Shown in pieces: positions 129 through 12,900 of a stretch of 38,587 nucleotides of DNA. The position numbers and the translations under genes were made by a program. This DNA is from Acidobacteriota bacterium. Lineage in GTDB: Bacteria; Acidobacteriota; Blastocatellia; UBA7656. Within the stretch, counting starts at the first letter, position 1. Every line of letters begins with the position of its first letter. Below the pieces are notes generated by a model. That model was given only the letters and a program-made list of their open reading frames with translations, made no database searches and was not told where the DNA came from. The stretch spans positions 1 through 38,587 of the forward strand of contig JACQDB010000022.1 of the NCBI GenBank assembly GCA_016201275.1, written 5' to 3'.

Positions 129-613
129 GCGAAAGTCCTGAAAATAAAAATTTTCTAACTCATCAGAAATTTTTGCGCCAAAACCTGCACTCATGAATTG
201 AAAGACGCCGCAGGGTATTTTTCAAATCTCATCAGAAAAGGAGCGCGCTAATGTTGAATCAGTCGCAGGTAACAGATCAGGGATCATTTCACCAGGGCTT
301 TCATCTCGTCGGCGGAAATGAAGACACCAGATCCACAGATATAAAAAATCCAGGACCAACATCGGAAAATGTCGACCGGGTTGGTGGGTGCGAAGATTCC
401 AGAAACAGCAACTTGGAAAAAGTGGCAGAACCACCAGCGGATAATCCCAGAGGCTGATTCTTCGCTGGCACATCATCTTTGTCGTCGGAGGACAATAGCG
501 ATTCGGATGGACAGTTGCTATTGAATGATTTGCCTTCGACGACAAAGCATCACGTCAACCAGCTGACCTGTTGGCACATCTACAATTCGATTGGACAGAT
601 TTGGAGAGACACG
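129..613. other. Leader region upstream of the CHAT operon, no certain gene
   Basis: These 485 bases separate the truncated first frame from the CHAT gene. The only element I can support is a possible small ORF at 251-457. On the minus strand a stretch ending at about 287 (peptide ending ISADEMKALVK) also reads as protein-like, with several aromatic residues before it, so part of this region could be the decayed 3' end of an older minus-strand gene. I found no convincing sigma-70 promoter, although the operon promoter must lie here or further left. Confidence 0.4.
251..457 (+). CDS. Possible small hydrophilic protein, 68 aa
   Basis: ATG 251 is preceded by a good ribosome binding site (AAGGAG at about 237-242, spacing 8). 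The product is acidic and polar. It has a weak internal repeat, VGGNEDTRSTDIKN then VGGCEDSRNSNLEK. I recognise no family. It sits directly ahead of the CHAT gene and might be the first gene of that operon or a leader peptide. The competing reading is that the region is non-coding or a remnant on the other strand. The ribosome binding site is the main argument for it. Confidence 0.3.
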   Translation: MLNQSQVTDQGSFHQGFHLVGGNEDTRSTDIKNPGPTSENVDRVGGCEDSRNSNLEKVAEPPADNPRG

Positions 614-1339
614 ATGGATGACAAAATAAAGATACTGTTCCTTGCCTCAAACCCTACGGCAAGCGGTCGGCTTCGACTGGACGAAGAATATGCCCAGGTC
701 AAAGAAGCGCTTCATCACGGCGAAAATAGGGATTCATTCGAGTTAATCGCTGAATTTGCAACCACTTCCAGGCGACTATTCGACGCTTTGCTCAGGCACA
801 AACCGCATATCGTCCATTTCAGCGGGCACGGAGATCAGAAAGGCGGCGGAATCGTTTTAGATGATGGCTTTGGCAACGTCAAACTGATCGATAAAAAAGA
901 TCTGACGGAACTTCTGGATGTACTCAAAGACAACATTTTCGCGGTATTTCTGAATTCCTGCTATTCGGCAGATCAGGCTGATGCCCTGGCTGATCTGGTT
1001 GATTACAGTATTGTCATAAATAACCCGATTGGCGACAATGCGGCAATCAATTTTGCCGCAACATTCTATCAGGCGCTTTCATTTGATCGAACCATAGTAG
1101 AAGCCTTCAAATTAGCCGCAATCAGCCTGAATATGAATGGTCTGACCGGCTCGACGGTGCCTGAGTTGCGCCTCCGGCAAGGCATTGAGAAACCCGCCTC
1201 GGTTTGTGCCTATCTGAAGCACGAAGTGAAGAGGCCAGAACCCGCACCGTCAGATCGTGCCGGAGAGCCGTCCATAAATAAAGGAACGATCATCACCGCT
1301 GGTACTGTGACGACTCTTAACATAACCAATAATCAATAG
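614..1339 (+). CDS. CHAT-domain caspase-like protease
   Basis: This is a 241-aa cytosolic protein and almost entirely a CHAT domain, a clan CD cysteine peptidase related to caspases and separase. Residues 7-35 carry the usual opening, ASNP followed by LRLDEE. The catalytic His is in HFSGHG (His72) and the Cys in NSCYS (Cys116), so it looks active. ATG 614 is chosen over an upstream in-frame ATG at 479 because GGAGAG at 602-607 is well spaced and the conserved domain starts there. The C-terminus (about residues 210-241) is a low-complexity linker ending in TVTTLNITNNQ, like a peptide in the 865-aa protein downstream. CHAT proteases in conflict operons act as effectors, often suicidal. The substrate here is unknown. 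Confidence 0.85.
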   Translation: MDDKIKILFLASNPTASGRLRLDEEYAQVKEALHHGENRDSFELIAEFATTSRRLFDALLRHKPHIVHFSGHGDQKGGGIVLDDGFGNVKLIDKKDLTELLDVLKDNIFAVFLNSCYSADQADALADLVDYSIVINNPIGDNAAINFAATFYQALSFDRTIVEAFKLAAISLNMNGLTGSTVPELRLRQGIEKPASVCAYLKHEVKRPEPAPSDRAGEPSINKGTIITAGTVTTLNITNNQ

Positions 1340-1716: not shown

Positions 1717-4314
1717 ATGGCTTGCGAGAATTGTGGCGCTGACTTGATCGAAGATGAAAATCATGAGTGCGACCCATCGAAGAAGAAAAAGAAGCAACCG
1801 CTCCAATTGGGTGGTGGCAGTAAGCAGACACCTGAAACCCACGATGACGACACGCAAACAGGATGTAATGGAAATATTATCGTAGAGGCGATTCTTCGAC
1901 AGGGCACTAAGAACGAATCAAATGAGAAGGAATCCAACGACTCGTCATCTACATCCAAGTCGCAGACTACGAATGTCAATATAAATATTAATAACCAATC
2001 AAAGGACGAGGAAGAAAAACCCCAAAATAATGGCTCTGGCAATACGCTGTTTGACCTGAGCGAACCTCTGGGTAAGACGAAGTACCAATTGCCTGATGAC
2101 ATCAAGACGCAGGCAGGACACTTTCTGTCAGTTGTTGATAAGGAATACCTGCTTATTGTAAGCAGCCCGGATCCTGGCACTACATATTTTGCCGGACGCG
2201 GATTAGTGGATATGTTGCAGATTCCGGATGACGAGCGAAGAAGGACATTGGATCTCACACATCCTCGCGACGAAATCGCCACGATTGATATCTATTCCCT
2301 GTTCGGGAAATCAGACACCCACATTGATGGAAACATGGTGGTTATCATCAGATGCGCCGGTACACCATCAGCGCGGTTTCTGGATTCACTATTCGACATG
2401 CAGACGCCCGATTTTTGCGGTGTACAAGACAAGTTGATAGGGCGTGGAACCTATTTGATCTGTTTAATCCCTTCGCAGGAATTAAACAGGCGGAAAATCT
2501 CACTCAAGCGTTTGCAGTGCAAGGTTTGGCATATCGACAGGCTCGGCTCCTTGCTGAAGGATTACTTTCCTGACACCTATGAGAGCGTGCAGGATCGTCT
2601 GCTCGATCAGCGAAAATATGGATTGTGGTCTGAGGACGAACAGGAATTCTATAATGAGGTGAAGACAGCGCTAGAAAATGGGAACTTGCCACAGAAGCTT
2701 GAGGCGAACCAGCCTGAGATTGAGAAAAAATCAACAGAGTATGTTATTCCTGAAGACAAACCTTTGCATCAGATGGTCTATTATGTTGCCACTTTTTTCC
2801 CCGATCTTAGCCCCAACGACTTCAACAAAGTCGTCCAAGTGCTGCTTGGCGACAGCACAACCACGATCAGCAAGACAATCACCCAGCAGTCCGAGGATGG
2901 AACAATCAGGCAGGTCACTGTTGAAGTGGAGAAACCGCTCCACGAGTTATGGCGGACATCCTCTGACAGTCTTCGCAGGGATTGTAATCTAAAATCCCAA
3001 CGTAAGGAATCCACTGTCATTGCGTTTTCAAAGGAATGGATGCAGGGTCATTTTAAGAAGCTCTTTGAAGAAAATCATAGCTTTTACCTCGAAAATCAAT
3101 TTGAAATGATTCAATCCACAGGGCTGCTTTTCTCTCCATCCGTGAAGGTTGCCGAAAATGTCATTACTCTGATTGTCGACCGCATTCTGACCTTTCCGGA
3201 TGTATATGACAAATTCTGGTTGTTCAATCTACTAAGAGTGGTGAACGCTACTCTTGAGGAAATCAGCGCTCTGTCCTGGATGCCGGACATTGTCCGCTTT
3301 CTACACGCCGAAAATGCCAAAAAACTGTATAACCGTCTCTCTGAACTGATCCGAAAAATGCTTGAGAATGCCTCACTGACCAAAATGGTCAACGGTTTAC
3401 TCGAAGAATTGATGCGTATCGGTGCACACGAATCAGTGTTTGAGATAGTAAAAAATCTGAGGTATGCATCCAATTTCAACGAATTCCATTGGTTAAGGCA
3501 ATTACTTGAGCAAGGCACTGCCGAGATCGCTCAATCAGTTCTGCACTATTTATTTAGCGAAATGAAACGCCTGAACTTTCGCGTGTACGAAGTGCTTCAT
3601 GCCCTGGACGGTTGGCTACCCGACCCGAACGACACGGAAAAAGGGTACTCAATCAGCGGATGCTCTCCTCTGAAGCTACTGGTGAAATACTATGAGTATT
3701 CTATGCGCGAGGTCACTTTTGAAAATCATGGTCAATGGCCCACGACTTACCCTTTGCTATTTGCTAAAGATTCAAAAACAGTAGGCGATAATTTTGGATT
3801 GCTGATTCGCTGTTTTTTCCATCCCTGGATGAAAGCTATATTGGCTGAAAAATCCGCCGAGGAGGAGCCTGAAATCTATTACTACACCGGCAGCTTCGTA
3901 GTTAGCTTATCATTGATACTGCTGAACTCGCCGGATCGGGATTGGGACAATTTGCCGCCGGAGCAGGTTCAATCTACTAATATTGAAACCGTAGGCACAC
4001 CTACCGCCGAGGTTGTTCGCAATGAAGCAAAAGAAAGGCAACTGCGTCCTGATGACCTATTTGAAATCCTGGTTCAAGAACTGGTGAAGGCAGCGGCGGA
4101 ACTACAGCAGCGAACCGTATATTCGGAACTTGCCGAATGTTGGAAGGATTATAAAACCTTATTTGTTCATCTCATCAACCAGATCGGCTATAAACAACCG
4201 GATATTCGGAGTCGTCTGATTGGTGCCTACAAAACAGTTCTCTATGTAGAATCCGAATTTAATCGCCTACGTGTTGAGGCGGTCGGTGTAGCGCAGCAAG
4301 TCAGTGTCAGCTAA
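1717..4314 (+). CDS. 865-aa protein: zinc knuckle, disordered linker, degenerate NTPase-like region, helical C-terminus
   Basis: I do not recognise a named family. Residues 3-18 form a Cys-x2-Cys-x9-His-x-Cys knuckle, followed by a Lys run. Residues 25-108 are disordered and include NVNININNQ at 86-94. From about 110 an alpha/beta region starts: EYLLIVSSPDPGTT (about 133-146) sits where a Walker A loop would be but lacks the Gly-Lys-Thr/Ser signature, then a strand MVVIIRCAG (about 217-225) and GTYLICLIPSQ (about 254-264) resemble Walker B and sensor strands. This suggests an inactive STAND/AAA-like module. Residues 480-865 look all-helical, possibly HEAT-like. GGAG at 1703-1706 supports the start. 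The gap to the next gene is 26 bases. Its likely role is signal integrator between the membrane motor and the CHAT protease, by inference only. Confidence 0.75.
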   Translation: MACENCGADLIEDENHECDPSKKKKKQPLQLGGGSKQTPETHDDDTQTGCNGNIIVEAILRQGTKNESNEKESNDSSSTSKSQTTNVNININNQSKDEEEKPQNNGSGNTLFDLSEPLGKTKYQLPDDIKTQAGHFLSVVDKEYLLIVSSPDPGTTYFAGRGLVDMLQIPDDERRRTLDLTHPRDEIATIDIYSLFGKSDTHIDGNMVVIIRCAGTPSARFLDSLFDMQTPDFCGVQDKLIGRGTYLICLIPSQELNRRKISLKRLQCKVWHIDRLGSLLKDYFPDTYESVQDRLLDQRKYGLWSEDEQEFYNEVKTALENGNLPQKLEANQPEIEKKSTEYVIPEDKPLHQMVYYVATFFPDLSPNDFNKVVQVLLGDSTTTISKTITQQSEDGTIRQVTVEVEKPLHELWRTSSDSLRRDCNLKSQRKESTVIAFSKEWMQGHFKKLFEENHSFYLENQFEMIQSTGLLFSPSVKVAENVITLIVDRILTFPDVYDKFWLFNLLRVVNATLEEISALSWMPDIVRFLHAENAKKLYNRLSELIRKMLENASLTKMVNGLLEELMRIGAHESVFEIVKNLRYASNFNEFHWLRQLLEQGTAEIAQSVLHYLFSEMKRLNFRVYEVLHALDGWLPDPNDTEKGYSISGCSPLKLLVKYYEYSMREVTFENHGQWPTTYPLLFAKDSKTVGDNFGLLIRCFFHPWMKAILAEKSAEEEPEIYYYTGSFVVSLSLILLNSPDRDWDNLPPEQVQSTNIETVGTPTAEVVRNEAKERQLRPDDLFEILVQELVKAAAELQQRTVYSELAECWKDYKTLFVHLINQIGYKQPDIRSRLIGAYKTVLYVESEFNRLRVEAVGVAQQVSVS

Positions 4315-4340: not shown

Positions 4341-6830
4341 ATGGCTCAAGTGTATGGATTGGATGTTGTAATTGTACAAACTCCTAACGGACGAGACGAC
4401 GCGCCAAGCGGCAAGCAACTGATCACCATAGATAAAAATACAGGCAAGAGCGTCCGGAAACAGAGCATCCTGGGTAGAATCGGCAAAGATTTGAAATATT
4501 ATCTCGTGTCGAACAACAATAATGCCATCAATGTCGCCGAATGTGAGTTGATCGACATTGTGCTGCCCTATTTTGATTATAAGATCAAGCTGGATATACG
4601 CTACCACGCCAGTTGCAATCCCGGAGATGAGACCAGGCTTGCCGAAGGGTTGTTTGATCGTATTGATCCGCCTGCCGTCGTGCTCAATAACAAAATAAAG
4701 CAGTGGGTAAATCAATTGAGCCGCAATGATGCCGAATCTTTCATCAATGCCTATTTCGAGAATAAAAATCGCCTGCGAGCCGATTTAAGTCGGCGGGCTT
4801 TTGAGGAGACAGGCGTTAATCTTGTAATCGATATGACGCTTGTCGGTGAAAAGACTCTCAATCCGATAACCATAAAGCTTGATGCGGTCAATTTTCGGGC
4901 ATGCGATTATGATCAGGAAGAAACTTTCAAAGTCAGAGCCGAACTGACTGTGGACAGCCAGAATAAAGTTAAAGCGCTGTTGAATGCCAGTAAAGAGCCG
5001 GAACTTCGCGAGATGGTTCCCAGAGAGTTGGGAAACTACATTCGCGAAAGGGTAACCCTGCAACAGCTTTATCTTGAGTTTGATGGTGATGAAGTCAAGA
5101 GTCCCCTGAAAGCGCATTTTAATGATATTTTGCGTCCTTTTGGACGAAAGCTTGAAATCATCAAGGTTGAAGGGAAGTCTGACGCTTCGCTTAAGCCATA
5201 CTTTCCTGCGCAGAAGGACGTTAAATACTGGATTCAGGAGTATCCGGAACTGGTAACCATCAAAAACACTGTGCAGATGGTTTTGTTTGATCTGGCCAGT
5301 TATCGTAGATCCGGTTCCGAGGATCTTGACAACTGGCTTGAGAAAAAATTGGACAGGATTATCGATGAACAGCTTTTTGAAGCCAAATATATCGACTTAC
5401 TGCTGCATTTCAAAGTGCTGGAACAGACGATAAAGGCAGCCTTAACCAAAGAGGCGCACGCCATTGGTTACGAAATCAAGCATCTGGTAACCGTCCCTGA
5501 TCTGGAACCCATTACATGGAAAACCGGAATGTCGATTACAGCAGAGGGCGAATATGAAACCCGCGTCGCCGGTCTGTATGTCAAGCTGAAAACTGAAATC
5601 GAAGCCCGTATCCCTAATCTTGAGACCATACGTGACTATCTGAACCGCAATCGCCAACAGAATGTCAAAGAGCTAATGAAGGAAGCGGCCAAAAGGGTTA
5701 CAAGGCAATTCATTCATAAAGTGCTGCCCGAGCGGTTTTATATGCGCTTCAACTTCACCGATACTGCGGAAGAACCGCCGGTGGAACAAGAACTCAAGCG
5801 GCTCATAGGAGAGGTGCTTGAGCAAGATTTCGGCGCTGAGATTATTGATATAACGCCGAAGCCTGTGGAAACGGAACTGGTTGAACGTTACAAAGCTCTC
5901 AAGGAGCAGATCGGTAAGTTTGAGGTAAAACTGGAACTACTCAACGATGTCGAGTCGGTTGTCTTCAGCGGTATGTTCCAGATCGAATCAGTTGACCTTA
6001 ATGGGTGGGATAAATTCCAGTTGAAGAAATACAGTCTCGACGAAATCCGCAGCTTTATGGAAGAAAGCATCAAGGCAAACCTGGCCACATTCGGCAGCAA
6101 TATACTTGCCTACAGAACCGTTCAGGAACGCAAGCAAATTGAGCAGTATGTTAAAGATATTGCACAGGAATACGTCAGAGAAGGTTTTGGTCTGATTGCT
6201 AAAATCCATACCGTTCATCGTCATGTAACAGCCTCTGAACAGGATGAAGTCCGTTTGACTCTACAGGAAATGAAGACAGCAAATGAAACTCATATACGGC
6301 GTCTGATAGCAAAGGGAACCACAGAGCTTGAGATAGATCAGGAAAAGCTTAACACAATTAAACAACTGGAGCACGACCGCCTCAGTCTTTTCAGTGTGCC
6401 GGGAAGCGAGAAACAGATTGAGAAGATTGAAGACCAGATACGGCGGCTTAAGGAGGAGGTAGATAATCAACGTCCTCCGAGCATAGATAAGGTAAAGTTG
6501 AAATATCTGACGGCGTTCCCAAGTAACGGACAAAATAACCTGCCAATGTTAGGGGCGGCGACGGCATCACCGGACGATACAGATTACCCTGAAAAGACCG
6601 ACAATAATCCTTTCGACATGCCGGAAAGCGAGGAACAGGTAGAGAAGATAGATGGTCAGATACGGCAGATTAAAAAGGAGGTAGAGGATCAACGTCCTCC
6701 AAGCAAAGATCAGGTAAAGACGAAATACCGGAAGGTATCTTCCGACGGATGGAACGAACTGTCATCACAGGGCGTGACAGAAGCGCCGGATGGTACGGAT
6801 TATTCTGAAGAGGTTAACAATGAATATTGA
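4341..6830 (+). CDS. 829-aa protein with tandem SPFH/band-7-like modules
   Basis: The protein reads as about five successive units of 85-105 residues (approximately 75-165, 193-278, 303-390, 405-510, 526-625). Each starts with strands such as YKIKLDIRYHA or KFEVKLELL, has a long charged helix with paired Arg/Leu residues, and ends with a Gly followed by a short strand (GVNLVIDM, GYEIKHLV, GAEIIDIT, GFGLIAKI). That layout is typical of SPFH (stomatin/prohibitin/flotillin) domains, which build large membrane-associated rings. The units are very diverged and there is no obvious N-terminal membrane anchor. Residues 640-710 look coiled-coil. The C-terminus holds a tandem duplication (685-735 and 759-808). 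GAGAGGT at 4330-4336 supports the start. The stop overlaps the next gene by 11 bases, so the two are translationally coupled. SPFH assignment is inference. Confidence 0.65.
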   Translation: MAQVYGLDVVIVQTPNGRDDAPSGKQLITIDKNTGKSVRKQSILGRIGKDLKYYLVSNNNNAINVAECELIDIVLPYFDYKIKLDIRYHASCNPGDETRLAEGLFDRIDPPAVVLNNKIKQWVNQLSRNDAESFINAYFENKNRLRADLSRRAFEETGVNLVIDMTLVGEKTLNPITIKLDAVNFRACDYDQEETFKVRAELTVDSQNKVKALLNASKEPELREMVPRELGNYIRERVTLQQLYLEFDGDEVKSPLKAHFNDILRPFGRKLEIIKVEGKSDASLKPYFPAQKDVKYWIQEYPELVTIKNTVQMVLFDLASYRRSGSEDLDNWLEKKLDRIIDEQLFEAKYIDLLLHFKVLEQTIKAALTKEAHAIGYEIKHLVTVPDLEPITWKTGMSITAEGEYETRVAGLYVKLKTEIEARIPNLETIRDYLNRNRQQNVKELMKEAAKRVTRQFIHKVLPERFYMRFNFTDTAEEPPVEQELKRLIGEVLEQDFGAEIIDITPKPVETELVERYKALKEQIGKFEVKLELLNDVESVVFSGMFQIESVDLNGWDKFQLKKYSLDEIRSFMEESIKANLATFGSNILAYRTVQERKQIEQYVKDIAQEYVREGFGLIAKIHTVHRHVTASEQDEVRLTLQEMKTANETHIRRLIAKGTTELEIDQEKLNTIKQLEHDRLSLFSVPGSEKQIEKIEDQIRRLKEEVDNQRPPSIDKVKLKYLTAFPSNGQNNLPMLGAATASPDDTDYPEKTDNNPFDMPESEEQVEKIDGQIRQIKKEVEDQRPPSKDQVKTKYRKVSSDGWNELSSQGVTEAPDGTDYSEEVNNEY

Positions 6831-8316
6831 TGCGATGTTACGACCTGCTCGGCGACAAAGATACGCGATATCCTCGGTAAAGGAGCTGCTGTGGAGCCCA
6901 GGCTTCTGGTTGGCGCAGCCATACTTTTTGTCTCTGCTTGTGGCTAGCCTCATCGCGCTTCTGGTTCTCGCTCCTTATACATACGAATTTGCGGGCGGCT
7001 GGGTCTTCCTGACCCTGGTGATTCATCTGTTGACCGGATGGGGGGCTTTTTACGCCGCCAATTCGCTGGCAAAAATTGAAGTCGAACGCGCCATTTTGGC
7101 AGAAGTGGAATCAAAAGGCGCAGACTATTTGCGAGCTGTTAAAGCTGGTCGCCTTTCACGCATAGACCTGGATCACCTGGAAGAGACGATTCTGCCGCAC
7201 AATCAGTCAACCCCTCCTCCTGCGATGATTCGACTCTTTCAAAATATCTGCAAAGAGGCCAGAGATCGTCGATTTGAATCCAGCGTCAGTGTCATTCAGC
7301 CATATCGGGACGAAGTTATCGAAGACATTTTTCGTCTTCAGAATCTCCAGAAAATAACCCTGTGGCTTGGCATTCTGGGTACTTTTGTCGGCATGATTCT
7401 GGCACTACAAGCGGTTGATTGGGACAGTATAAAAACTGATGACGGTTTTCTAAGCGTTCTGAAAGGAATGTTTGACGCATTGTTCGTGTCGTTCAGCGCC
7501 AGTCTGGCGGGACTGGAAGCGGCCGTAATACTTGGCTTTTTACTTCTTGCTCTGCGAAGCAAACAGCAGGATTACTTCAAGGCGATGGAAAACGTTGTGC
7601 TCACTATGTTGTCGCTAGCCAGGAATGCGATCAACAAAGACGATTTTCTCTCGGAGTTCAGTCAGATCAATGTTACGGTCAGCGATCTCAGCGATCGTGT
7701 CAACGAACAAACGAAGGAGTTATCCGACAGAATGATTCGGGTTCAGAGTCAAATCAAAGTTCAAACGGATCAGATCGACCAGGGCATTACAAAACTCACC
7801 GCCACCGGTATACAGTTCGATAGGTTTCTACATCAGGTCAGTAACATTCAGCAAGAATTTATCAACGATGTCAAAGGCGTTTATGATTCAATAGCATTGA
7901 ATAAACTTGGTACTGTGCTTCAGCAGACTATAGCCGAATCAGGAACGCACCTTTCCATCGCTCTTACTACGAACCTGAATCAAGTGACAGACCAGTTAGC
8001 CAGATTTAACGATATCGTTAAGGTAGCAAATGACACCAGAGAAAATCAGATGCGCCTGGTTGCAGAACATATAGACGAACTGGAGAAGCAGATGAGTGCC
8101 CAATCAATGGGAAATACCAAAGTGATGGAACAGGTAGCCCACTACCTGAAATCCATGAACAGTGAAACCAGTATTACAACGTATCTGCGGGCCGAAATTG
8201 GCCAATTGTCAAAACAGGTGCGTGACTTAGTCCAGATCATCGAAAGATCGAAACTTGTTCAGCGTCGCCGTACCGTCAGAGAATTTCTCACCGACACCTT
8301 TGCAAGACTTAGCTAG
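6820..8316 (+). CDS. zorA-like: MotA/TolQ/ExbB-type channel subunit, ZorA-like
   Basis: This 498-aa inner-membrane protein has hydrophobic segments at about 34-54, 60-80, 178-199 and 216-245, the four-helix layout of MotA/TolQ/ExbB proton channel subunits. LGILGTFVGM (183-192) is the family's TM3 signature. After TM4 a cytoplasmic tail of about 250 residues is predicted to be coiled coil, with repeated Gln/Asp heptads (SDRVNEQTKELSDR). A long tail of this kind is characteristic of ZorA rather than of flagellar MotA. ATG 6820 is preferred over ATG 6790 because AAGAGG lies just upstream and it overlaps the SPFH-like gene's stop, as coupled genes do. It should pair with the following gene as a 5:2 stator-like complex. 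ZorA-like is based on architecture, not alignment. Confidence 0.8.
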   Translation: MNIDAMLRPARRQRYAISSVKELLWSPGFWLAQPYFLSLLVASLIALLVLAPYTYEFAGGWVFLTLVIHLLTGWGAFYAANSLAKIEVERAILAEVESKGADYLRAVKAGRLSRIDLDHLEETILPHNQSTPPPAMIRLFQNICKEARDRRFESSVSVIQPYRDEVIEDIFRLQNLQKITLWLGILGTFVGMILALQAVDWDSIKTDDGFLSVLKGMFDALFVSFSASLAGLEAAVILGFLLLALRSKQQDYFKAMENVVLTMLSLARNAINKDDFLSEFSQINVTVSDLSDRVNEQTKELSDRMIRVQSQIKVQTDQIDQGITKLTATGIQFDRFLHQVSNIQQEFINDVKGVYDSIALNKLGTVLQQTIAESGTHLSIALTTNLNQVTDQLARFNDIVKVANDTRENQMRLVAEHIDELEKQMSAQSMGNTKVMEQVAHYLKSMNSETSITTYLRAEIGQLSKQVRDLVQIIERSKLVQRRRTVREFLTDTFARLS

Positions 8317-8346
8317 TCGAAACAAAACAGCTTGGATAACCGATTT

Positions 8347-9012
8347 ATGAGAAGCCTTAACGATTTATTATCAGAAGATACCAATCAATTTGGGCCTGGC
8401 ACGGACTTGGTCATTGCATTGCTTGCGGTATTGCTGGTCATCGTCCTGATCAGCGCCCGTCTTTACTCCAAAGAAAAGATAAGGAACACTCAGTTTGCCG
8501 CCGACGGTAAACTGAAACAAGAGGCTCTTGACCAGGCAAATGAGAAGCTGGCAAAGAATTCTCAGGGGAAATTCAAGCTTGCCACAAGCAGTTTTTCAGC
8601 AGGGGATTTCCTGATAAATCCTGCCACTGAGTTCCGCAATCGATCCGAAGCAAACGCCAAAGTTGCAACGATTATAGCTGAATATGAGAAGATACAGTCA
8701 GATTATCCTTATATCTTCATTATCGGTCACGCCAATCAGATTGACGTCAAGGGTACCAGTGATAACGGTCCATTGGCACGTCAAAAAAGGAACTGGGACT
8801 TTGCTGGACGGCGGGCCGTCGAGGTAGGAGGTATGCTTGGGGCGCATCTTTCTCTGTTACAGCAGGATAAACTTGTGATCGTGTCTGCTGGCGAATTTGA
8901 TCTGAAGCTGCCCGCCAGTCCAGATTCGCAGGAAAATGCCTGGGTCGAGGTAGTTTTCGGCAAAGAATGGAAGCTACCAGCTCGCGAAAGTCAGTCCGAC
9001 CAACGCAAATAG
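8347..9012 (+). CDS. zorB-like: MotB/OmpA-like stator partner, ZorB-like
   Basis: A single transmembrane helix spans residues 20-38 and begins with Asp20 (GTDLVIALL), matching the proton-carrying Asp of MotB/ExbD/ZorB. A helical linker (45-75) leads to a periplasmic OmpA-like peptidoglycan-binding domain (about 78-215) with IIGHAN (125-130) and NWDFAGRRA (149-157), the family's GH and N-x-A-x-x-RA motifs. The usual Asp of GHxD is Asn here. The product is 221 aa if ATG 8347 is used; TTG 8332 is possible, but only 8347 has any upstream GGA. It follows the channel gene by 30 bases. Together they form the ion-driven motor of this operon, anchored to the cell wall. Confidence 0.8.
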   Translation: MRSLNDLLSEDTNQFGPGTDLVIALLAVLLVIVLISARLYSKEKIRNTQFAADGKLKQEALDQANEKLAKNSQGKFKLATSSFSAGDFLINPATEFRNRSEANAKVATIIAEYEKIQSDYPYIFIIGHANQIDVKGTSDNGPLARQKRNWDFAGRRAVEVGGMLGAHLSLLQQDKLVIVSAGEFDLKLPASPDSQENAWVEVVFGKEWKLPARESQSDQRK

Positions 9013-11000: not shown

Positions 11001-11392
11001 AGTTCCTCCGCGATTCGCTTGTCAAACTTTGAGGGGTTGCGCTGACAAAAAATCCCTGAGCAGATTAGCAGTTTTCAGGCGGTTGTCAAACACCTGCGCG
11101 AGCCGATCAAGGCAGCCATAAAGTTCAAGCCGTGGGGTGACGAAAGTTCAAAGTTTGCCAACCCAACCGGCCTTCTCAGCAGATCAAACGGCTGTAGCGG
11201 ATGAGCGCGGATTATCCGTCTTCAGTCGCTCACTCCGCCGCAGCCGCTGGGAATTCACACGACGCAGGCATCACGATGAGCTGTCGCAATGCAATTTTGC
11301 CAACGCCCTGCCGCGTAGGTTTTGCTTGCGTCCCTCATTCGCGGCTTCCTATAATGCTGGCCATCGGGCATTCGCGTGAGGGAGATTTCCGA
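11001..11392. other. Divergent intergenic region
   Basis: These 392 bases separate the minus-strand NTF2-like gene from the plus-strand diiron oxygenase. The right end holds a credible promoter at 11326-11355. The frame of the oxygenase is open back to 11201, but that extension (Ala/Ser/His/Arg-rich) lacks a ribosome binding site and overlaps the promoter, so I treat it as non-coding. Nothing else was recognised. Confidence 0.5.
11326..11355 (+). promoter_or_regulatory. Putative sigma-70 promoter of the diiron oxygenase-ferredoxin operon
   Basis: A perfect -10 box TATAAT at 11350-11355 is preceded, with an 18-base spacer, by TTGCGT (11326-11331), a weak -35. Transcription would start near 11362, about 30 bases before ATG 11393. 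Confidence 0.5.
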
Positions 11393-12592
11393 ATGAATCA
11401 ATCGCTTTCGCAACGGCAAAACCAATCTTTGCTCGATGACCACAAGACCTGTCGCAAGCTGGAACTGAATTATCGCCGGAATCAACAGCAGGACAACACC
11501 CGCAACCTGGATGCGCTGGCGGCAAAGTTTCGCTATGAAGATTGTCAAAACGTGCGCTGGAACCCGGAAAATTTTTCCCTGCTTTACGGCACGAAACTCT
11601 GGCACGAAGCGACCGCCACGCAGCGCACCAAACTCAATCAGTTGTACTGGGTGGCGTACTACTCGCAAATTATTTCGGCGGAAATCGCGACGATTTTTTT
11701 CAATCAAACCAGCGCCGCAGGACTCTATGCGCTCGAAGATTTTCGCCTTGTCTGCGACACCCTTGATTTGGAATCGGCGCAGGAGCGAGCGCACATCAAC
11801 GTCTTCAAAAAAATCTCCGAAGATTTCGAGCAGGCGGTGTTTGGCGAACGCCTGTTCACCTACGCCATGCGCGGTCCGTTTGTCGAGACCATGATTCATC
11901 ACCACAGCAATCGCGTGAAAAAGTTCTGGCGCTGGCTGCAACTGCACGCTTTCACGCTGTTGTCATCGGGCAATGCCTTCATCGGCTGTCAATATTTCAC
12001 CGTGCGCGGCGTGCGGACGTTGAACGGCAAATTGATTCAACATCAACTCAGCCGGTTTTATGCAAAGAGCGAAGACCAAGCTAACGCCGCGATTCCTTCG
12101 CAGGTCAGCTATTGTCATTTCCTAGACGAGTCGTTTCACTTCAACAGCTCGACGGTGATTTCGCACGATGTGTTGCAGTCGGTAAAAGCGCCTACGCAGT
12201 TCGAGCGCTTTGTGGCGAATCGCGCCCTGCGCGGCACGCAACAAGACCACTATCATTTTTCCACAGCAATCAATGGGCTGTTCTGGTACGACCCGGCGCT
12301 CTTTGCGAAGGTTTATAAAATTCTGCGCTCGCCAATTTTTCAGATGAGTGACCAGGAAGCGCGGCAGATGATGACCGAATGTTTTACCAAAGACAGCGAT
12401 GGCTTGCAGCTTTCGGCACAGAGCCGCCAAATCGCTTTGGAGTCGTATTGCGAATATCTGTCGGCGCTCGACTATGTGAGCCGCGACAATAAAGCGATGG
12501 CGATTATGCGGCGCAATTCCATCGCTCGACACCTGGCAACCAATCGCCGCGAGTTGAGGAAATTTTTTCTTGCGTTGGATGCCGGTCAATGA
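11393..12592 (+). CDS. AurF-like diiron oxygenase
   Basis: The 399-aa protein has the ferritin-like ligand pattern of AurF/CmlI-type non-haem diiron oxygenases: Glu97 (SAEIATIFF), the Glu131-x-x-His134 pair (QERAH), a Glu near 164 (FVETMIHHH), the Glu246-x-x-His249 pair (DESFH) and a further His258 (ISHDV). AurF enzymes N-oxygenate aryl amines, using electrons from a reductase or ferredoxin. The substrate here is unknown. ATG 11393 follows GAGGGAG at 11378-11384. The stop overlaps the start of a ferredoxin gene (ATGA), which fits a dedicated electron donor. Some related proteins act in fatty-acid or natural-product chemistry instead. Confidence 0.7.
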   Translation: MNQSLSQRQNQSLLDDHKTCRKLELNYRRNQQQDNTRNLDALAAKFRYEDCQNVRWNPENFSLLYGTKLWHEATATQRTKLNQLYWVAYYSQIISAEIATIFFNQTSAAGLYALEDFRLVCDTLDLESAQERAHINVFKKISEDFEQAVFGERLFTYAMRGPFVETMIHHHSNRVKKFWRWLQLHAFTLLSSGNAFIGCQYFTVRGVRTLNGKLIQHQLSRFYAKSEDQANAAIPSQVSYCHFLDESFHFNSSTVISHDVLQSVKAPTQFERFVANRALRGTQQDHYHFSTAINGLFWYDPALFAKVYKILRSPIFQMSDQEARQMMTECFTKDSDGLQLSAQSRQIALESYCEYLSALDYVSRDNKAMAIMRRNSIARHLATNRRELRKFFLALDAGQ

Positions 12593-12900
12593 ATCCCCAT
12601 CGTGACGAATTCATTATCCGCTTTTCGCCGCCGACGCACGCCCCGCTATGGCTCCAACGCGGCGCGGTGTTGTCCGAGCATTTAACCATAGACAATTCAC
12701 CGCTGTTGTTCGGTTGTCGCACGGGCATTTGCGCCACCTGTTTGATAGCGGTGCTGGCACAGGAAAATGGCGAACTGTTGCCGCCTGCGGATGACGAAAA
12801 AGAATTGTTGGAGATTGTCGCGCCTGCTGACGCAAAGGCGCGCTTGGCTTGTCAGATTGAATTGTGCGCCGACCTCACGATTCACTATTATGGCAAATGA
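12589..12900 (+). CDS. [2Fe-2S] plant-type ferredoxin
   Basis: A 103-aa protein with the CX4CX2C...C cluster-binding pattern: Cys43, Cys48, Cys51 (GCRTGICATC) and Cys88 (LACQIEL). Length and spacing match the chloroplast/adrenodoxin-like fold. ATG overlaps the oxygenase stop (ATGA), so it is translationally coupled and very probably supplies electrons to the diiron site. No dedicated ferredoxin reductase is adjacent, although two oxidoreductase genes follow. Confidence 0.85.
   Translation: MNPHRDEFIIRFSPPTHAPLWLQRGAVLSEHLTIDNSPLLFGCRTGICATCLIAVLAQENGELLPPADDEKELLEIVAPADAKARLACQIELCADLTIHYYGK

What the first reader, a model, noticed from the sequence alone, without database searches (positions are those of the whole stretch)
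4341..6260. Five diverged SPFH/band-7-like units in one polypeptide
The 829-aa protein repeats a pattern of strand pair, long amphipathic helix and Gly-strand ending at about 85-105 residue spacing. SPFH proteins normally have one domain and oligomerise into rings. A single chain with about five could pre-form a ring segment around the motor tail. This is pattern reading; sequence identity between units is low.
Basis: inference. Interest (0 to 1): 0.7.

Follow-up and report, generated by a model that had tools for sequence, protein, structure and literature searches.

The report
Five-unit SPFH scaffold beside death-type effectors
A bacterium encodes one protein chain with five copies of a scaffold domain that usually occurs once per chain and assembles into rings, and relatives of this gene sit in clusters that look like bacterial cell-death or defence signalling systems.

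Summary
The 829-aa ORF (4341-6830) is predicted to contain five consecutive beta-beta-alpha4-beta units (residues ~76-630), then a long helix. Units 3 and 4 match solved SPFH domains (prohibitin Z 13.8, flotillin-2 band 7 Z 11.3). Profile self-comparison supports repeats ~110 residues apart, clearly for units 2-4, fairly for unit 1; unit 5 rests on predicted topology. Two of six distant homologues lack one unit-sized block, at different places. No membrane segment is predicted.

The motor reading is not supported as the general one: ZorA/ZorB-like genes follow only in the window (1 of 7 loci). Conserved in 7 of 7 is a pair, an ~850-aa helical-repeat adaptor plus the multi-SPFH protein, beside CHAT, caspase or TIR genes, and in 5 of 7 a DUF4407 membrane protein. 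Effector tails share short motifs with the adaptor of the same locus (pairing permutation 16 of 5040; clear in 3 of 7, marginal in 1, absent in 3, the window among these). I read it as a soluble SPFH scaffold in a rare, modular, probably cell-death or defence signalling system. Function is inferred, not shown.

The parts
479..1339 (+). CHAT-family gene (ORF from TTG 479; the part shared with G001 begins about the ATG at 614). 'HFSGHG' and 'NSCYS' carry the His and Cys expected of the caspase-like clan (motif recalled)
   Evidence: Pfam CHAT E 7.2e-9; PADLOC chat E 6e-11; 41% identical over 251 columns to the CHAT protein beside the G001 homologue; sequence
1277..1336 (+). CHAT C-terminal tail (residues 267-286), resembles by eye the Asn-rich stretch of the next protein; not significant here (z 0.5)
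1717..4314 (+). Adaptor ('middle') protein, 865 aa: one N-terminal CxxC, disordered tail, low-confidence central part, helical repeats at ~440-860
   Evidence: AlphaFold2 mean pLDDT 59.8; helical-repeat matches, FANCD2 Z 9.5; related proteins beside the SPFH gene in all 6 other loci: G001 24%, G424 21%, Flavivirga 20%, G1075 22% over 131 columns, G447 and G503 aligned
1864..2001 (+). Adaptor N-terminal tail (residues 50-95) with an Asn-rich stretch, where other loci carry the motif shared with effectors
4341..6830 (+). Multi-SPFH protein, 829 aa, no predicted membrane segment
4566..4850 (+). SPFH unit 1 (residues 76-170)
   Evidence: topology; in-register match to unit 2 over 77 columns, 2 of 100 shuffles as good
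4860..5183 (+). SPFH unit 2 (residues 174-281)
   Evidence: Band_7 E 0.062 alone; SPFH profile, 0 of 60 shuffles as good
5193..5510 (+). SPFH unit 3 (residues 285-390)
   Evidence: prohibitin 8rrh_A Z 13.8, 2.1 A over 102 residues; Band_7 E 0.023 alone
5520..5873 (+). SPFH unit 4 (residues 394-511)
   Evidence: flotillin-2 band 7 1win Z 11.3, 2.1 A over 110 residues; unit 2-unit 4 hhalign score 29.5, 0 of 100 shuffles as good
5901..6230 (+). SPFH unit 5 (residues 521-630), by predicted topology; sequence support weak
   Evidence: E-E-H-H-H-H-E; unit 4-unit 5 3 of 100 shuffles as good
6231..6467 (+). Long helices after the last unit (residues 631-709), probably coiled coil
6790..8316 (+). ZorA/MotA-like membrane protein, 508 aa, four hydrophobic segments and a ~250-aa tail; from its first ATG the ORF overlaps the SPFH gene by 41 bases
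   Evidence: PADLOC ZorA3 E 2.9e-10; MotA_ExbB E 0.001, below its cut-off
8332..9012 (+). ZorB/OmpA-like protein, one hydrophobic segment
   Evidence: OmpA E 0.0069, below its cut-off; ZorB1 E 0.0075

Best explanation
SHOWN BY COMPUTATION: the 829-aa protein is predicted to be a soluble chain of five diverged SPFH (stomatin/prohibitin/flotillin/HflK-C type) units followed by a long helical segment, and in 7 of 7 loci its gene adjoins that of an ~850-aa helical-repeat adaptor beside CHAT, caspase or TIR genes. INFERRED: the pair is the core of a rare signalling module of cell-death or defence type. The SPFH chain is a pre-linked scaffold that docks on the cytoplasmic part of a membrane partner (DUF4407 in 5 loci, ZorAB in the window) and holds the adaptor there. 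When envelope damage or infection disturbs that assembly, the adaptor's disordered N-terminal tail is freed or clustered and gathers the effector through a short homotypic, possibly amyloid-like, motif shared by adaptor and effector tails. Clustering activates the peptidase or TIR enzyme. Several units in one chain fix the local stoichiometry and spare free ring assembly. Likelihood by step: all five units SPFH-fold 0.84; two-gene core with swappable effectors and membrane partner 0.8; motif-mediated effector recruitment 0.45 (0.3 for the window itself); membrane scaffold role 0.4; defence rather than another stress role 0.5.
For: Fold and repeat. Unit-number variation: in G001 (617 aa) 11 of the 113 columns of unit 3 remain, in G1075 (613 aa) 19 of the 113 of unit 2. 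Conserved core: adaptor and multi-SPFH genes adjacent in 7 of 7 loci, adaptors related. Effectors: CHAT at 4 loci (window; G001 by similarity; G447, G503), caspase at 3, TIR at 2. Membrane partner: DUF4407 at 5 of 7, ZorAB-like in the window. Motif: z 9.7 (G1075), 7.8 (G001), 4.0 (Flavivirga TIR), 2.6 (G503); same-locus pairing reached by 16 of 5040 permutations. Other signalling genes: kinase, PP2C and vWA in Flavivirga, kinase in G001 (below one Pfam cut-off, above another), ThiF/E2/JAB in G1075 and ThiF/JAB in G447.
Against: No experiment of any kind. The shared motif is not significant in the window, G424 or G447, and some cross-locus pairs are raised too (G424 effector with G447 adaptor z 3.6). 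In G447 the CHAT gene is on the other strand. pTM is 0.37 and the alignment has 5 rows, so unit-unit geometry is unknown. Units 1, 2 and 5 were not matched singly to solved structures. SPFH profile does not detect units 1, 4 and 5. Unit 5 scores higher against the unrelated adaptor than against any other unit. In one search only about half of the ten pairs (1-2, 2-3, 2-4, 3-4, 4-5) align roughly in register; the rest are short and shifted. ZorAB association rests on one locus. No DUF4407 in the window or at G424.
Confidence: 0.5

Rival explanations
1. Motor ring: two or more five-unit chains form a ring around the ZorA tail or the ZorAB stator, as the SPFH-fold FliL ring is proposed to surround the flagellar stator unit, and gate ion flow or rotation. 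Two chains would give ten units, the FliL number.
For: The gene overlaps the ZorA-like ORF by 41 bases; FliL structures are among the fold matches (7sgn Z 9.5, 6ahq Z 9.4); FliL forms decameric rings with an inner diameter comparable to the stator unit (PMC6426602, passages).
Against: ZorAB-like genes at 1 of 7 loci; no relative of the window's ZorA in the other 92 of 93 genomes searched with the single sequence; FliL is periplasmic behind a membrane helix, this chain has no predicted membrane segment; two homologues have four units; Pfam FliL did not come up at E <= 1.
Confidence: 0.15
2. SPFH-like fold without SPFH ancestry: a repeat of a common alpha/beta topology (ribosomal chains match too) used as a plain spacer or scaffold.
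For: Ribosomal small-subunit chains, eS1 by recall, score Z 9-9.8, mostly on unit 4; units 1, 4 and 5 are at noise against an SPFH profile; PDB sequence search with the 28-row unit profile finds no SPFH protein and only chance hits.
Against: SPFH chains lead both fold searches; whole-protein Band_7 score exceeds the cut-off; unit 2+3 profile matches SPFH proteins (E 0.0048, 0 of 60 shuffles as good) on the same diagonal as the Pfam matches.
Confidence: 0.1
3. Protein quality control: the chain works like HflK/C or prohibitin, caging or regulating a protease at the membrane, in a housekeeping stress response.
For: SPFH complexes are linked to protein quality control (PMC12624060, passages); a CHAT or caspase gene at 7 of 7 loci.
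Against: Rare distribution (4 of 162 class genomes; 2 of 396 phylum genomes); CHAT and caspase exchanged and TIR added; no FtsH family among the 10 window proteins scanned.
Confidence: 0.13
4. The predicted topology is partly wrong: units 2-4 are SPFH, units 1 and 5 are other alpha/beta domains.
For: Unit 5 pairs: 1 to 6 of 100 shuffles as good, and an unrelated protein scores higher; units 1 and 5 undetected by SPFH profile; 5-row alignment.
Against: Block means of pLDDT 70-91 in unit 1 and 68-89 in unit 5, with the same order of elements; unit 1-unit 2 match over 77 columns in register.
Confidence: 0.12

Closest known systems
SPFH superfamily: stomatin, prohibitin, flotillin, HflK/C, erlin
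   Same: Unit fold (prohibitin Z 13.8; stomatin Z 12.2-12.8; flotillin-2 Z 11.3); long helix after the domain
   Different: Five units of this core in one chain (known proteins are described with SPFH1 and SPFH2 parts; the unit matches one core domain); no membrane anchor predicted; low sequence similarity
FliL (stomatin-like flagellar stator protein)
   Same: SPFH fold (Z 9.4-9.5) and, in the window only, a MotAB-like neighbour
   Different: One domain, periplasmic, membrane-anchored; here five units, predicted soluble
Zorya anti-phage system
   Same: ZorA3-like and weakly ZorB-like genes in the window
   Different: No ZorC, D, E, F or G among the 10 window proteins scanned; SPFH chain, adaptor and CHAT instead
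iSTAND and other ternary conflict systems (Kaur et al. 2020, PMC7159879; passages and section 20 read)
   Same: TIR and caspase domains, vWA, kinase and PP2C themes, helical repeats, membrane association of some systems
   Different: No MoxR among the proteins scanned; adaptor not shown to be a STAND NTPase; the passages read mention Band seven domains but no multi-SPFH chain
Amyloid-motif signalosomes (recalled; listing)
   Same: Short motif shared by effector and adaptor of one locus in 3-4 of 7 loci
   Different: No known motif family was matched; amyloid formation untested

Membership tests
SPFH superfamily | SPFH fold: twisted beta sheet with four helices, about 105 residues | tested here: met
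   Units 3 and 4: Z 13.8 and 11.3, 2.1 A; same predicted topology in units 1, 2 and 5, not matched singly
SPFH superfamily | Band_7 sequence profile | tested here: met
   25.3 bits against cut-off 23.6 for the whole window protein; but only 1 of 5 members of A5 matches at E <= 1 and a six-frame Band_7 search of the own genome did not list the window
SPFH superfamily | Membrane anchor | tested here: not met
   Hydropathy: no 19-residue window above 1.6 in the window protein nor in 4 of 5 other homologues tested (G1075 not tested); the G001 peak of 1.71 lies inside its unit 5. Acylation not tested; SPFH definitions ask for the domain, and most, not all, complexes are at membranes
SPFH superfamily | Ring or cage oligomer | not testable with these tools
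   No multimer prediction available
FliL | Periplasmic SPFH-fold domain behind one membrane helix, in flagellar operons | tested here: not met
   No membrane helix; no flagellar family except the weak MotA_ExbB match in the 10 window proteins scanned, FlxA-like match below cut-off
Zorya | ZorA and ZorB motor pair | tested here: inconclusive
   ZorA3 E 2.9e-10; ZorB1 E 0.0075 only
Zorya | Type-specific effector ZorC/D, ZorE or ZorF/G | tested here: not met
   None at E <= 1 among the 10 window proteins scanned
MoxR-vWA ternary systems (iSTAND, VMAP) | MoxR AAA+ ATPase with a vWA protein | tested here: not met
   No AAA match among the 10 proteins each scanned of window, Flavivirga and G1075; vWA only in Flavivirga; G001 has an AAA protein beside an injection-system gene
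iSTAND adaptor | Inactive STAND NTPase domain | tested here: inconclusive
   Residues ~150-280 modelled at pLDDT 36-59; no NTPase family among matches at E <= 10
Amyloid-signalling effector pair | Same motif in effector and adaptor tails | tested here: inconclusive
   Clear in G1075, G001, Flavivirga TIR, marginal in G503, absent in window, G424, G447

The most novel reading that the evidence does not exclude
A so far undescribed bacterial signalling or immune module whose core is a soluble, covalently pre-linked SPFH ring segment. It couples a membrane machine (DUF4407 or a ZorAB motor) to an adaptor that templates CHAT, caspase or TIR effectors through amyloid-like motifs. In the window two five-unit chains could close a ten-unit collar around the ZorA tail, like a cytoplasmic FliL ring, turning motor state into effector clustering.
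Probability: 0.3. Interest if true: 0.88.

Novelty: new variant of a known kind. Interest (0 to 1): 0.68.

Why it matters
SPFH proteins are known as subunits that assemble into rings (24 in HflK/C, 26 in the erlin complex; PMC12624060, passages). A chain with several units fixes the order of units in sequence, so one polypeptide could show unit-unit contacts directly. The cluster also links the SPFH fold with CHAT, caspase and TIR genes and with DUF4407, a membrane family named in only 3 papers of the library searched, and makes a membrane-to-effector pathway testable with two core genes.

Tried and rejected
Homologue search: the single-sequence scan of genome contigs found no relative; viral contigs, phages and plasmids found none. 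PDB sequence searches gave no hit, two chance hits, and for the unit profile only unrelated chains (ATP synthase b, E 0.0016 at best). NCBIfam gave nothing usable. A first SPFH profile from 30 loci was faulty: 8 were dropped for stops and 2 of the 22 kept were empty; with it no single unit exceeded the best of 60 shuffles (unit 3 nearest, z 2.8). I rebuilt it from 30 of 30 loci and quote that. One search also used the faulty profile. Repeat windows shifted by 30 residues gave lower scores, best 20.8. Fold-search rows do not cover units 1, 2 and 5; this is untested, not negative. The adaptor as an inactive STAND NTPase is not shown. Literature: 'band 7' + Zorya + antiphage 0 papers; tandem or multiple SPFH wording 2 papers, one seen in the listing only, one in passages, neither on such repeat chains; SPFH with caspase/CHAT/TIR/vWA, with TIR/defence terms and a Band_7 query showed nothing on multi-SPFH chains in the rows listed, which are a part of the papers found.
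Full report
Observation. The ORF at 4341-6830 (+) encodes 829 aa. Pfam Band_7 passes its cut-off for the whole protein (25.3 bits, E 1.8e-5) although no single stretch passes alone, as a sum of weak copies would. AlphaFold2 on an alignment of the window protein with four homologues (mean pLDDT 72.8, pTM 0.37) gives five units of two strands, four helices and one strand: 81-167, 176-278, 288-387, 397-508 and 524-627, then helices from 631 to 709. Unit 4 ends 500-508 and unit 1 has a short extra helix at 170-173 after it. Four helices and a twisted sheet is how the FliL paper describes the SPFH domain (PMC6426602, passages). First strands are 95, 112, 109 and 127 residues apart.

Repeat test. 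Sliding hhalign self-comparison of a 6-row alignment gave its best matches at offsets near 110, 220 and 330. With fixed 110-residue windows the pairs unit 2-3, 2-4 and 1-2 align in register (scores 26.2, 29.5, 18.3), while 400 shuffled comparisons have mean 10.3 and maximum 19.3; windows shifted by 30 residues score lower, best 20.8. With AlphaFold-defined units the sum of ten scores is 180.7 against 105.0 +/- 6.1, maximum 122.2, in 100 shuffles. Single pairs are reached by 0 to 22 of 100 shuffles. Pairs 1-2, 2-3, 2-4, 3-4 and 4-5 align roughly in register; 1-3, 1-4, 1-5, 2-5 and 3-5 are short matches, mostly shifted. Against segments of the unrelated neighbouring protein 7 of 10 pairs exceed the control's 95th percentile (16.0) and 2 of 10 its maximum (20.4), and that maximum is a unit 5 comparison. 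So units 2-4 are clear, unit 1 fair, unit 5 weak by sequence.

Relation to SPFH by sequence. Units 2 and 3 alone hit Band_7 at E 0.062 and 0.023. Against a profile of 30 single-SPFH domains from relatives, the unit 2+3 profile scores 22.5 (E 0.0048; 0 of 60 shuffles as good), unit 2 18.6 (0 of 60), unit 3 14.8 (4 of 60), units 1, 4 and 5 are at noise. The matched positions lie on one diagonal and agree with Pfam's.

Fold. Foldseek against PDB ranks HflK/C, prohibitin, stomatin, flotillin and erlin chains first, 8 with E <= 0.001. VIA-align gives unit 3 prohibitin 8rrh_A Z 13.8 (2.1 A, 102 residues) and P. horikoshii stomatin Z 12.8, and unit 4 mouse flotillin-2 band 7 Z 11.3 (2.1 A, 110 residues). 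FliL reaches Z 9.5, ribosomal chains 9.8. The tool warns that other parts of the model are barely tested.

Unit number varies. Seven homologues were found: window, G001, G424, G447, G503, Flavivirga aquimarina (L018) and G1075. G001 (617 aa) and G1075 (613 aa) have a long internal gap over window residues 278-361 and 157-267; 11 of 113 columns of unit 3 and 19 of 113 of unit 2 remain. The gaps join equivalent points of successive units, so these chains have about four units. Which unit is missing depends on the alignment.

Distribution. 4 of 162 genomes of the class (own included); 2 of 396 of the phylum draw (own included); 1 of 395 drawn from the phylum of Flavivirga (itself) and 2 of 397 from its family. 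The genome-contig scan with an alignment, limited to two peptide patterns, gave 4 loci: three with Acidobacteriota or Thermoanaerobaculia titles and Flavivirga aquimarina. Contig lengths show that the three are G503, G447 and G424. The window's genome shares a class with G447 and G503, so it is Acidobacteriota by kinship (inference).

Neighbourhood. Adaptor gene and multi-SPFH gene are adjacent in 7 of 7 loci. The window's adaptor is related to those of G001, G424, Flavivirga (20%, E 6e-20) and G1075 (22% over 131 columns, E 5e-8), and aligns with those of G447 and G503. CHAT at the window, G001 (by similarity), G447 (opposite strand) and G503; caspase at G424, Flavivirga and G1075; TIR at Flavivirga and G1075. 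DUF4407 lies within the fetched stretch near the pair in 5 of 7; a DUF4407 model found none in the window or L017. In the window the next ORFs are ZorA3-like (E 2.9e-10) and weakly ZorB/OmpA-like. No relative of that ZorA was found in the other 92 of 93 genomes searched with the single sequence. Further genes: vWA, PP2C and kinase with DUF4407 in Flavivirga, kinase with DUF4407 in G001, ThiF and JAB in G447, ThiF, E2 and JAB in G1075.

Motif. The last 60 residues of the effector and first 150 of the adaptor share a motif within a locus in G1075 (FQNDVMFGNNNTIN / FEQDVIFGNRNTIN; z 9.7), G001 (z 7.8), Flavivirga TIR (z 4.0) and marginally G503 (z 2.6), not in the window (0.5), G424 (0.6) or G447 (-0.5). 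The Flavivirga caspase tail, tested only, gave p 0.12. Same-locus pairing is reached by 16 of 5040 permutations. Raised cross-locus cells: G424 effector with G447 adaptor z 3.6 and with the window's 2.8; Flavivirga effector with G503 adaptor 2.8; G503 effector with G424 adaptor 2.6.

Adaptor. AlphaFold2 mean pLDDT 59.8; N-terminus disordered, residues about 440-860 helical repeats, with FANCD2 and importin-like matches at Z 8-9.5 that may mean only a common arrangement. A STAND-like core is a guess.

Interpretation. The repeat and the fold are computed results. The scaffold role, membrane docking, motif-driven clustering and defence purpose are inferences from neighbours. The motor-ring reading survives only for the window. 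In print: Kaur et al. 2020 (PMC7159879; passages, section 20) mention Band seven domains among conflict-system effectors. Searches for tandem or multiple SPFH chains showed none in the rows listed; the library lacks most subscription papers, so novelty in print is not proven.

Noticed in passing
L018 499-16841: Flavivirga aquimarina locus packs two TIR and a ThsB-like TIR gene, caspase, T4SS coupling protein, vWA (with an N-terminal stretch that looks ubiquitin-like by eye), PP2C, kinase and DUF4407 around the multi-SPFH gene.
   Followed up: partly
L057 5488-17894: G1075 locus adds ThiF E1, E2 (UQ_con) and JAB genes, a ubiquitin-like conjugation set, next to caspase, TIR, adaptor, multi-SPFH and DUF4407.
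   Followed up: partly
L013 12814-17400: G447 has ThiF, JAB and DUF4407 downstream of the SPFH gene, as in G1075.
   Followed up: partly
L004 2903-8129: Contractile injection system tape measure protein and an AAA ATPase lie beside the G001 cassette.
   Followed up: no
L013 809-5175; L014 13353-17286: Large TPR-like proteins that end in a CHAT-like region by eye, each near a small ORF that looks like a sigma factor by eye, flank the cassette in G447 and G503; no family scan was run on them.
   Followed up: no
window 11201-12900: AurF-like protein (below cut-off) followed by a 2Fe-2S ferredoxin-like gene.
   Followed up: no
window 1717-1770; L004 10266-12851: The adaptors of the window and G001 begin with one and two CxxC motifs, like a zinc ribbon; no such motif was seen by eye at the start of the other five.
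   Followed up: no
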